A program made the position numbers and the translations under genes. A DNA stretch of 64,000 nt from Wenjunlia tyrosinilytica (lineage in GTDB: Bacteria > Actinomycetota > Actinomycetes > Streptomycetales > Streptomycetaceae), in assembly GCF_014646055.1 (NCBI RefSeq), contig NZ_BMMS01000033.1, forward strand, positions 1 to 64,000, read 5' to 3'. Positions within the stretch are counted from its first letter, which is position 1. The number at the start of each line of letters is the position of its first letter. The notes beneath the pieces were generated by a model. That model saw only the letters and a list, made by a program, of their open reading frames with translations. It was not told the DNA's origin and made no database searches. Below are positions 20,629 through 23,125 of this stretch, one piece after another.

Positions 20629-21708
20629 GTGACCACCAGTGCGGAGGGAGTCTCCGAACCCGAAGCCGACAAGCCCGGCGCTGCCCGGGCGGCAGCAAGG
20701 GCCGGCGCCGAAGCGGGGGCGAAGGCGGGGGTGCGGGCGGCGTCGCGCAGCCGCGGTCCGCGGCCGCGCCGCGGACTGGTCCTCGGCGGCGGAGGAACGC
20801 TCGGCGCGGCCTGGGCCATCGGCGCGCTGTGCGCCCTCGAGGAGGCCACCGGCTGGGATCCGCGGTCGGCCGACGTGATCGTCGGAACCTCCGCGGGGTC
20901 GATCCTGGGCGCTCTGCTCTCCTCCGGTGTCAGCCCCTGCGAGCTGCGCGACCACCAGCGCGGCACCCCTTTGACCAGCGGCCCGCTCAGCGGCCTGCTG
21001 TTCGACTACGACACCGCCACCGGCGGCCCGCTGCCGCCGCCCCCGCGGCTGGGCATCGGTTCGCCGAGCCTGCTGCGGCGCACCGTGCGCCATCCGCGCA
21101 GCTACCCCTTCCAGACGGTGGTGTCGGCGTTCCTGCCCACCGGCCGCGCCACCATGGACGGCATCGGGGTCCTGCTCGCCGCTCTGGGCCCCGTGGAGGA
21201 CTGGCCCGACCACGCCGGCCTGCGCATGGTCGCCGTCGACTACGACACCGGTGAGCGGGTGGCGTTCGGGGCCCCCGAGGCTCCTGCCGCGGGAGTCGGG
21301 GAGGCGGTGCTGGCCTCGTGCGCCATCCCGGGCTGGTTCGTCCCCGTGACCATCGACGGCCACCGCTACGTGGACGGCGGAACGTGGTCGGCCACCAGCA
21401 TCGACCTCCTGCTCGGCCACGAGATGGACGAGGTGTACGTGCTGGCGCCCATGGCGTCCCGCGACCTCGACCAGCCGCGCAGCCTGCCCGCGCGCGTGGA
21501 ACGCCGCTACCGGCGCTCGGTCACCCGCAAGATGCTGCGGGAGGCGAAGGCGCTTGAGGAGGAGGGCGCCCGCGTGGAACTGGTCGTGCCGGGACCGCAG
21601 GACCTGACCGTGATGGGCGCCAACATGATGGACCCCGTCCACCGGCTGAGGGTCCTGGAGACCTCCCTGCGCACCAGCGCGGCGGCGCTGCGGGCGGCCA
21701 CCGCCTGA
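20629..21708 (+). CDS. Patatin-like phospholipase
   Basis: A 359-residue serine hydrolase of the patatin/RssA type. The oxyanion-hole loop is GLVLGGGGTLGAAW (49-62), the nucleophile elbow is GTSAG (Ser88) and the second dyad residue is in YVDGGTW (Asp249). It is expected to hydrolyse acyl esters of membrane lipids; the physiological substrate is unknown. A disordered Ala/Gly-rich stretch of about 45 residues precedes the domain. The GTG start has a GAGAGGTGG site. The stop codon TGA (21706-21708) is formed at the left junction of the IS110 element: without the insertion the frame would continue about 64 codons, so the C-terminus has been reset by the transposon. Confidence 0.92.
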   Translation: MTTSAEGVSEPEADKPGAARAAARAGAEAGAKAGVRAASRSRGPRPRRGLVLGGGGTLGAAWAIGALCALEEATGWDPRSADVIVGTSAGSILGALLSSGVSPCELRDHQRGTPLTSGPLSGLLFDYDTATGGPLPPPPRLGIGSPSLLRRTVRHPRSYPFQTVVSAFLPTGRATMDGIGVLLAALGPVEDWPDHAGLRMVAVDYDTGERVAFGAPEAPAAGVGEAVLASCAIPGWFVPVTIDGHRYVDGGTWSATSIDLLLGHEMDEVYVLAPMASRDLDQPRSLPARVERRYRRSVTRKMLREAKALEEEGARVELVVPGPQDLTVMGANMMDPVHRLRVLETSLRTSAAALRAATA

Positions 21709-21714
21709 CAGTGA

Positions 21715-21900
21715 GGATTGGCGATGGCATCGCCCGGAGGTCTGACTCTCCGCCTGACTGACGCTTCCGTTGTCCTCTTGGGGAATCGTCGGCCTGCCGG
21801 GCGATGCCGTCCGGCGCGTGGCCGGTCGGGCTTCCGTGACTTCATAGGAGCCCGGCCAAAGGTCCCATCACTGTCTTGTCCGTCTGCCCGACCGGCTCGC
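21715..21900 (+). ncRNA. Candidate IS110 bridge RNA
   Basis: The leader between the element's left end and the transposase folds into two stem-loops. Loop 1 is closed by a perfect 12-bp stem (21726-21737 with 21797-21808), loop 2 by a perfect 11-bp stem (21821-21831 with 21886-21896). Loop 1 holds CCGCCT (21750-21755), identical to the left flank plus core, and GGGGAA (21780-21785), complementary to the right flank TTCCCC. Loop 2 holds ATAGGAGC (21844-21851), identical to the right end, and TCACTGTC (21868-21875), complementary to the left end GACAGTGA. In known IS110 elements a bridge RNA carries target and donor guides in this order. The transcript ends are estimates. Confidence 0.8.
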
Positions 21901-21942
21901 GCCCTCCCACCGTTGGGCGTTGGAAGGGCAGCACACACCAGC

Positions 21943-23007
21943 ATGGCAGACGAGACAGCGGTGGTCGGCGGGATCGACACCCACACCGACCTCCACCAGG
22001 TGGCGGTCATCGACCACATCGGCCGGCACCTGGCCACCGAACGGTTCGAGACCACGCCGGAGGGATACCGGCGGCTGCTGGACTGGCTCCGGTCCCACGG
22101 CGAGGTCCTCGCCGTGGGAATCGAAGGAACCGGCGCCTACGGCGCCGGGATCGCCCGGTTCCTCACCGCGAACGAGATCACGGTGGTCGAGGTGGACCGG
22201 CCGGACCGCAAGGCAATGCGGGACCACGGCAAATCCGACCCGATCGACGCCTACGGGGCCGCGACCGCGGTCCTGTCCGGCCGGGCCGCAGGAACACCCA
22301 AGACACGCAACGGAACCGTGGAGGCGATCCGCGCCCTGCGGGTCGTCCGCAAGAGCGCGGTCAAGGCCCGCACCCAGACCATCAACCAGATCCGCACCCT
22401 CATCGTCACTGCTCCCTCCGAGGTGCGGGACAAGCTGCGGGGACTGTCCACACCAGAGCTGACCGACACCTTGGCCCGCTCGCGTCCGGCCGGTCGACTC
22501 GACGATCCCGCCCGCGCGGTCAAGACCGCCCTGCGGCGGCTCGCCCGCCGCTACCGAGCACTCGACGAGGAGATCAAAGAGGCGGACAAGGAGATCGGAC
22601 CTCTGGTCACCAAAGCGGCCCCGAGACTCATCGCCCTGCCGGGCCTCGGCCCCGAAACCGCCGGCCAGCTGCTGACGAGCGCGGGCGACAACCCCGACCG
22701 GCTCCGCTCCGAAGCAGCCTTCGCCCACCTCTGCGGGGCCGCACCCGTCCCGGCCTCCTCCGGCCGCACCAACCGCCACCGCCTCAACCGCGGCGGCGAC
22801 CGCCAGGCCAACAACGCCCTCCACACCATCGTCCTGGTCCGCATGAAGTACGACCAACGCACCCGGGACTACGTCGCCCGCCGTACCGCCGAAGGCATGA
22901 CCAAGAAGGACGTCATCCGCTGCCTGAAACGGTTCGTCGCCCGCGAGGTCTACCGACACCTACCCCACATGATCCACACCACCAAACCGCTTCCACAGAC
23001 CGCTTGA
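21943..23007 (+). CDS. IS110-family transposase (DEDD recombinase)
   Basis: A 354-residue RNA-guided recombinase. The N-terminal RuvC-like domain carries the DEDD residues: Asp12 in GGIDTHTD, Glu61 in GIEGTGAYG, and Asp99/Asp102 in KSDPIDAYG. A helical middle section leads to the C-terminal Tnp_20 domain, LIALPGLGPETAGQLL and PVPASSGRTNRHRLNRGGDRQANNALH, with the candidate nucleophile serine at 272 or 273. All expected residues are intact, so it is probably active. The ATG at 21943 marks the start of homology; the upstream open frame overlaps the structured RNA and is rejected. The stop codon overlaps a TTGACG hexamer that may serve as the -35 of a circle-junction promoter. Confidence 0.95.
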   Translation: MADETAVVGGIDTHTDLHQVAVIDHIGRHLATERFETTPEGYRRLLDWLRSHGEVLAVGIEGTGAYGAGIARFLTANEITVVEVDRPDRKAMRDHGKSDPIDAYGAATAVLSGRAAGTPKTRNGTVEAIRALRVVRKSAVKARTQTINQIRTLIVTAPSEVRDKLRGLSTPELTDTLARSRPAGRLDDPARAVKTALRRLARRYRALDEEIKEADKEIGPLVTKAAPRLIALPGLGPETAGQLLTSAGDNPDRLRSEAAFAHLCGAAPVPASSGRTNRHRLNRGGDRQANNALHTIVLVRMKYDQRTRDYVARRTAEGMTKKDVIRCLKRFVAREVYRHLPHMIHTTKPLPQTA

Positions 23008-23125
23008 CGATCTATAGGAGCTTCCCCGCGGACCTCCCGGGGGCCGGGCCTTCCCGGGCGCGGCCGGTGCCGCGCCCTTATCCTGGGACCGTTGTCCCGC
23101 CCCGTCCCGGAGAAGTGGCCTGCCG

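What the first reader, a model, noticed from the sequence alone, without database searches (positions are those of the whole stretch)
21726..21896. Two perfect long stems frame separate target-binding and donor-binding loops
GGCATCGCCCGG (21726-21737) pairs perfectly with CCGGGCGATGCC (21797-21808), enclosing the two target-like segments with a small apical hairpin between them (around GACG-CTTC-CGTT, 21760-21771). GCCGGTCGGGC (21821-21831) pairs perfectly with GCCCGACCGGC (21886-21896), enclosing the two donor-like segments separated by GGCC-AAA-GGTC. Two stem-loops, each with a pair of guides flanking an apical hairpin, is the bridge-RNA architecture, and it was found independently of the guide matches.
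Basis: partly seen in the sequence, partly recalled or inferred. Interest (0 to 1): 0.7.

Follow-up and report, generated by a model that had tools for sequence, protein, structure and literature searches.

The report
IS110 bridge RNA aimed at stop codons
The two stems are the folded guide RNA of a mobile DNA element; its relatives show that this RNA picks the landing site, which in most cases is the stop codon of a host gene, so the element lands just behind the gene.

Summary
Confirmed. Both perfect stems are at the stated coordinates and are the only such pair within 190 bp in the window. They lie in the 5' leader of an intact IS110-family recombinase (ORF 21943-23007; element 21709-23023). 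In 57 aligned relatives all 12 pairs of the first stem and 7 of 11 of the second show changes on both sides, and 91% of cells pair against 31-43% in slid controls. The loops carry all four bridge-RNA guides. Target guides track each element's own flanks (LTG 7.0 of 8 matches against 4.6 shuffled), and the right donor guide and both 'handshake' positions covary. The circle junction rebuilds a conserved TTGAC-17/18-GAKGAT promoter. This is a new member of a known kind (IS110 bridge RNA). One hairpin register is off by three bases, and the lone RNA prefers to pair its guides.

Beyond the finding: 77 of 106 independent insertion sites end in TGA, and 48 of those 77 are in-frame stop codons (background 10%), so this lineage's target guide is written to stop codons. 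Two other IS110 lineages insert site-specifically into this RNA's donor guide, also in the window's own genome. Neither turned up in the papers searched.

The parts
21709..23023 (+). Whole IS110-group element (LE core C ... RE GAGCTT), 1315 bp
   Evidence: Ends set by empty versus filled sites of a relative, conserved ends, and the native stop codon TGA restored at 21706-21708
21943..23007 (+). IS110 recombinase, 354 aa, intact; D12, E61, D99, D102 and S273 align with the DEDD and Ser residues of IS621
   Evidence: Pfam PF01548 6e-25 and PF02371 5e-17; IS621 and ISCro4 are the only PDB relatives; residue positions
21726..21808 (+).
   Evidence: 12/12 pairs with changes on both sides, 89% of cells paired
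21739..21746 (+). Inner TBL helix, 5' arm (partner 21788-21794)
   Evidence: 99% of cells paired
21750..21759 (+). Left target guide LTG, CCGCCTGACT
   Evidence: 8/8 with target 21701-21708; covaries with flanks in 43 elements, p=1e-4
21760..21774 (+). TBL apical hairpin
   Evidence: 98.9% of cells paired
21780..21783 (+). Right target guide RTG, GGGG
   Evidence: Pairs with 23024-23027 CCCC; covaries with flanks, p=1e-4
21784..21785 (+). Handshake guide of the TBL, AA
   Evidence: Complements donor positions 6-7 TT (23022-23023); AU in elements whose donor has AT
21813..21903 (+).
   Evidence: 7/11 and 4/6 pairs with changes on both sides
21844..21851 (+). Left donor guide LDG, ATAGGAGC
   Evidence: 8/8 with RE 23014-23021; GAAG variants change together in four related elements
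21854..21864 (+). DBL apical hairpin GGCC-AAA-GGTC
   Evidence: 86% of cells paired
21866..21873 (+). Right donor guide RDG, CATCACTG
   Evidence: 7/8 complementary to LE 21709-21716; A/T swap covaries with LE in 17 of 57 relatives
21874..21875 (+). Handshake guide of the DBL, TC
   Evidence: Complements target positions 6-7 GA (21707-21708); TT with AA in L069, GC with GC in L075
23004..23009 (+). -35 box TTGACG of the circle-junction promoter
   Evidence: TTGAC in all 43 scored relatives
21713..21718 (+). -10-like box GAGGAT of the circle-junction promoter, 18 bp from the -35 when the ends are joined
   Evidence: Spacing 17-18 in all 43 (the 14/15 class is the GTGATGAT form read 3 nt early)
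21701..21708 (+). Left target CCGCCTGA; TGA 21706-21708 is the stop codon of the upstream patatin-like gene (20629-21708)
23024..23031 (+). Right target CCCCGCGG

Best explanation
[quoted passage not shown] When the element excises as a circle, the joined ends should rebuild a promoter (TTGACG-18-GAGGAT) that transcribes the leader (inferred). The RNA binds the DEDD/Ser recombinase (inferred from IS621). In the first loop LTG and RTG pair with the two sides of the target; in the second LDG and RDG pair with the joined ends of the element. Handshake bases in each loop then pair with the other DNA after the top-strand exchange. The element inserts at LT-GA|C-RT without target duplication. Here LTG spells CCGCCTGAC and the element sits directly behind the TGA stop codon of a patatin-like gene, leaving that gene whole. 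Shown by sequence: fold and its covariation, guide-to-DNA complementarity and covariation, boundaries, stop-codon enrichment. Inferred: transcription, protein binding, catalysis.
For: Recombinase family and catalytic residues. Covariation on an unguided MAFFT alignment of 57 leaders: 91.4% of cells paired against 31-43% in slid controls; 29 pairs with changes on both sides, 0/500 shuffles reach this. RNAalifold on its own pairs LE columns with RDG columns, with AU:36 and UA:17, which is the donor-guide complementarity. Guides versus own DNA, shuffled among elements: LTG 7.0 vs 4.6 of 8, RTG 4.2 vs 2.6 of 6, RDG 6.8 vs 6.5 of 8, both handshake pairs above all 10,000 shuffles. Empty and filled sites in Streptomyces sp. 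V4I2. Circle promoter in 43/43. Leader length varies by non-multiples of three (e.g. 197, 199, 203, 207), so it is not an N-terminal extension. Native stop codons of patatin homologues mostly lie at or near the same place; L156 reads ACCGCCTGA|CCGGGC.
Against: No transcript was measured. The isolated RNA prefers a fold that partly pairs the guides. RTG pairs only 4 bp plus 2 handshake bases in the window copy. LDG is almost invariant, so its covariation rests on a few related GAAG elements. Position 9 of the core differs between donor (A or T) and target (C or T), unlike the CT core of IS621. The window copy's own empty site was not found in a close strain.
Confidence: 0.96

Rival explanations
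1. The stems are an ordinary cis-regulatory leader (attenuator or translational control) of the transposase gene, and the guide matches are chance.
For: The leader sits directly upstream of the ORF and is strongly folded.
Against: Loop sequences track each element's own flanks and ends far above shuffles. No Rfam family matches. The flank-matching segments are exactly the variable parts of an otherwise conserved RNA.
Confidence: 0.02
2. The leader is protein-coding: an N-terminal extension of the transposase from the TTG at 21718, and the repeats are codon accidents.
For: The frame is open from 21718 into the transposase.
Against: Leader lengths among relatives differ by non-multiples of three. 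Changes are compensatory across stems. IS621 and ISCro4 align from near the downstream ATG.
Confidence: 0.01
3. Rival to the targeting part only: the stop-codon enrichment reflects selection against insertions inside genes, not guide targeting.
For: Insertions inside other frames are depleted (7/77 against 249/522).
Against: Setting aside sites inside other frames, stop codons are still 48/70 against 54/273 in the background. The guide itself contains NNCTGAC, and 76 of the 77 TGA sites carry CTGAC in the guide window.
Confidence: 0.25

Closest known systems
IS621 bridge RNA (IS110 group; Durrant et al. 2024 PMC11208160; Hiraizumi et al. 2024 PMC11208158)
   Same: RNA in the left end upstream of a DEDD/Ser recombinase; two internal loops; LTG/RTG and LDG/RDG with the same strand logic; handshake guides; circle-junction promoter; scarless insertion
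   Different: The predicted start lies at the TBL stem, leaving no room for the separate 5' stem-loop of IS621; position 9 of the core is not fixed as T; most targets are stop codons rather than REP elements; recombinase only distantly related (phmmer E 1e-11)
seekRNA of IS1111/IS110 elements (PMC11187229; ISEc11, ISEc21)
   Same: Non-coding region needed for circle formation and targeting; ISEc21 has it upstream of tnp as here
   Different: The IS1111 group carries the RNA in a long right end with long subterminal inverted repeats (PMC11208160), which this element lacks
IS900 and relatives (IS110 family, Mycobacterium; from own knowledge, not tested here)
   Same: IS110-family element with a gene-boundary target (between ribosome-binding site and start codon)
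   Different: Targets the start side; here the stop codon is the target

Membership tests
[quoted passage not shown]
IS110 family (recombinase) | Insertion without target duplication | tested here: met
   Empty/filled comparison in V4I2
IS110 group, not IS1111 | Long non-coding left end carrying the RNA, short right end | tested here: met
   LE 234 nt (21709-21942); RE 16 nt after the stop codon (23008-23023)
Bridge RNA | Two stem-loops with internal loops, conserved by compensatory changes | tested here: met
Bridge RNA | First loop complementary to own target, bottom strand left and top strand right | tested here: met
Bridge RNA | Second loop complementary to own donor ends | tested here: met
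   LDG 8/8, RDG 7/8 in the window; RDG covaries. LDG covariation is weak: only GG/GA variants of four related elements
Bridge RNA | Handshake guides complementary to the non-cognate DNA | tested here: met
Bridge RNA | Promoter formed across the RE-LE junction of the circle | tested here: met
   TTGAC-17/18-GAKGAT in 43/43; activity not testable
Bridge RNA | 5' stem-loop before the TBL (IS621 consensus) | tested here: not met
   About 7 nt between the -10-like box and the TBL stem. Not treated as defining: in IS621 its deletion only slightly reduces recombination (PMC11208158)
IS621 orthologues | CT core dinucleotide in donor and target | tested here: not met
   Donor CA or CT; target CC, CT and others; only C at position 8 is shared. 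So not filed as an IS621 orthologue
Bridge RNA | RNA expressed, binds the recombinase, directs recombination | not testable with these tools
   Needs wet-lab work

The most novel reading that the evidence does not exclude
A large actinobacterial lineage of IS110 elements carries bridge RNAs whose target guide is written to a host gene's last codon plus stop codon (NNC-TGA-C), so the elements land directly behind genes. The donor guide inside this same RNA gene is in turn the programmed landing site of at least two other IS110 lineages, which split and so probably disable it: RNA-guided elements parasitising another RNA-guided element through its guide.
Probability: 0.7. Interest if true: 0.6.

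Novelty: new member of a known kind. Interest (0 to 1): 0.45.

Why it matters
It is a clean natural series of programmed bridge RNAs: dozens of elements with the same scaffold and different guides, each with its target readable beside it. That directly tests the guide and handshake rules set out from IS621. The stop-codon aim is a simple safe-harbour strategy encoded in an RNA guide, testable by reprogramming a few bases. GC-rich actinobacterial recombinases are also candidates for genome engineering in Streptomyces.

Tried and rejected
My first boundary guess (core CT at 21705 and 23021) was wrong; empty sites in V4I2 moved it to 21709/23024. An exact-pattern search for the joined V4I2 target found nothing because the empty copies differ by one base and I had joined the flanks at the wrong place; a DNA search found them. 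The window's own joined flanks gave no empty site in relatives; gene homologues replaced it. I first read the truncated leaders ending at the LDG as the element recombining on its own guide; the sequence beyond the break turned out to be other IS110 elements in most cases. A phylum-wide pattern for the TBL was mis-spaced by one base and missed even the window. Rfam had no match. LDG-LD could not be tested by shuffling because it is nearly invariant. No hit for stop-codon targeting by IS110, or for IS110 insertion into a bridge RNA gene, in searches of the open-access library; subscription journals and preprints are not held.

Full report
1. Observation. Both stems are exact at the stated coordinates and are the only side-by-side pair of perfect inverted repeats of 11 bp or more within 190 bp in the 64-kb window. 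The strand folds at z = -5.5.

2. Context. The leader belongs to an intact 354-aa IS110 recombinase with both Pfam domains. Its only relatives among solved structures are IS621 and ISCro4, and the DEDD and Ser residues align. The host appears to be a member of the Streptomycetaceae: genomes listed as same family or same order include contigs of the same length as named Kitasatospora and Actinocrinis records.

3. Boundaries. Eight copies of a relative in Streptomyces sp. V4I2 and three empty copies of the same target show the join: empty ...ACTCAC|TCCCGCTCAG; filled ...ACTCAC|AGTGATG ... GGAGCTTC|TCCCGCTCAG. There is no duplication and one shared C. Applied to the window, the element is 21709-23023 and the target ACCGCCTGA|CCCCGCGG. 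That restores the stop codon of the patatin-like gene 20629-21708; homologues in ten relatives mostly stop at or near that position, and one reads ACCGCCTGA|CCGGGC.

4. Structure. On a plain MAFFT alignment of 57 leaders, the architecture drawn from the window pairs in 91.4% of cells, against 31-43% when partners are slid by 1-3 columns. 29 of 49 pairs have changes on both sides, and no shuffle reaches this. The inner GAC/GTC helices next to the guides are nearly invariant in both loops, which fits the pseudo-symmetric TBL and DBL of IS621 (PMC11208158).

5. Guides. Read in register, each element's LTG equals its own left flank (mean 7.0 of 8, shuffled 4.6), and RTG complements its right flank (4.2 of 6, shuffled 2.6). 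RDG follows the LE, including an A-to-T swap shared by RDG and LE in 17 leaders. LDG equals the RE in 8/8 positions and follows a GG-to-GA change in four related elements. The two bases after RTG complement donor positions 6-7 (AA with TT, AU with AT), and the two after RDG complement target positions 6-7 (UC with GA, UU with AA, GC with GC). This is the handshake pairing described for IS621 (PMC11208158).

6. Alternative fold. Alone, the RNA gains 14.6 kcal/mol by pairing guides. Those pairs hold in only 72% of cells across relatives, against 86-99% for the bridge-type pairs inside the two stems. I take the guide-open form as the bound form (inference).

7. Expression. Joining RE to LE gives TTGAC-17/18-GAKGAT in all 43 relatives scored (the script read the GTGATGAT form 3 nt early, giving 14/15, which I corrected by eye). 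The predicted start is then at the foot of the TBL stem. There is thus no room for the separate 5' stem-loop of IS621, whose deletion there only slightly reduced recombination (PMC11208158).

8. Stop codons. Of 106 clustered insertion sites, 77 end in TGA, and 48 of these are the in-frame stop of an open, high-GC3 frame; 7 lie inside another frame. CTGAC sites in flanking DNA and the window give 54 and 249 of 522. Every in-frame last codon ends in C, as the guide NNCTGAC demands. Coding frames were judged by openness and third-position G+C, not by annotation. Both targeting and purging of harmful insertions may contribute; the guide content argues for targeting.

9. The donor guide as a target. 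Leaders in nine or more genomes are cut exactly at LDG positions by two other IS110-family elements. B1 is about 1.28 kb, antisense, with a CT core (AG at 21846-21847 on the + strand). B2 is about 1.63 kb, sense, with the shared AG at 21849-21850. In the window's own genome a second leader, identical over 149 bp (window 21702-21850), is cut by an intact B2. B2's leader carries GCATAGGAGT, eight bases of which equal the LDG region it enters. More distant B2 relatives do not lie in this leader. A few other truncated leaders near this point (L166/L222, L217, L218, L220) are not explained by B1 or B2.

10. Verdict. The finding is right in observation and interpretation, with one hairpin register corrected. 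The RNA is a new member of a known kind. The stop-codon aim and the nested insertions are the parts a specialist would find unexpected.

Noticed in passing
window 21701-21709 and 106 relative sites: Insertion sites of this lineage end in TGA in 77/106 cases, and 48 of 77 are in-frame stop codons (background 10%); LTG carries NNCTGAC.
   Followed up: partly
window 21844-21850; L221/L237 (own genome C27), L210, L211, L064, L091, L214, L215, L219, L212, L213, L171: Two other IS110-family elements (B1 antisense, B2 sense) insert site-specifically into the left donor guide of this bridge RNA gene.
   Followed up: partly
L166/L222, L217, L218, L220: Leaders truncated near the LDG without a recognisable B1 or B2 element beyond the break.
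   Followed up: no
L208: A duplicated LDG (CATAGGAGCTCATAGGAGCC) in the donor loop, perhaps a footprint of an excised B-type element.
   Followed up: no
L048-L054, L062 (Streptomyces sp. V4I2): Eight copies sit in the end of another repeated element; LTG has changed to AGGACTCACT to match, and the empty copies differ by one base from the guide.
   Followed up: partly
L011, L014, L066-L068, L112, L175: A subgroup with LTG ATCCCCGATT inserts in a shared context AGATCCCCGA that is not a stop codon; its nature was not identified.
   Followed up: no
window 21718-21942: The leader frame is open into the transposase from a TTG; judged an accident of high G+C.
   Followed up: yes
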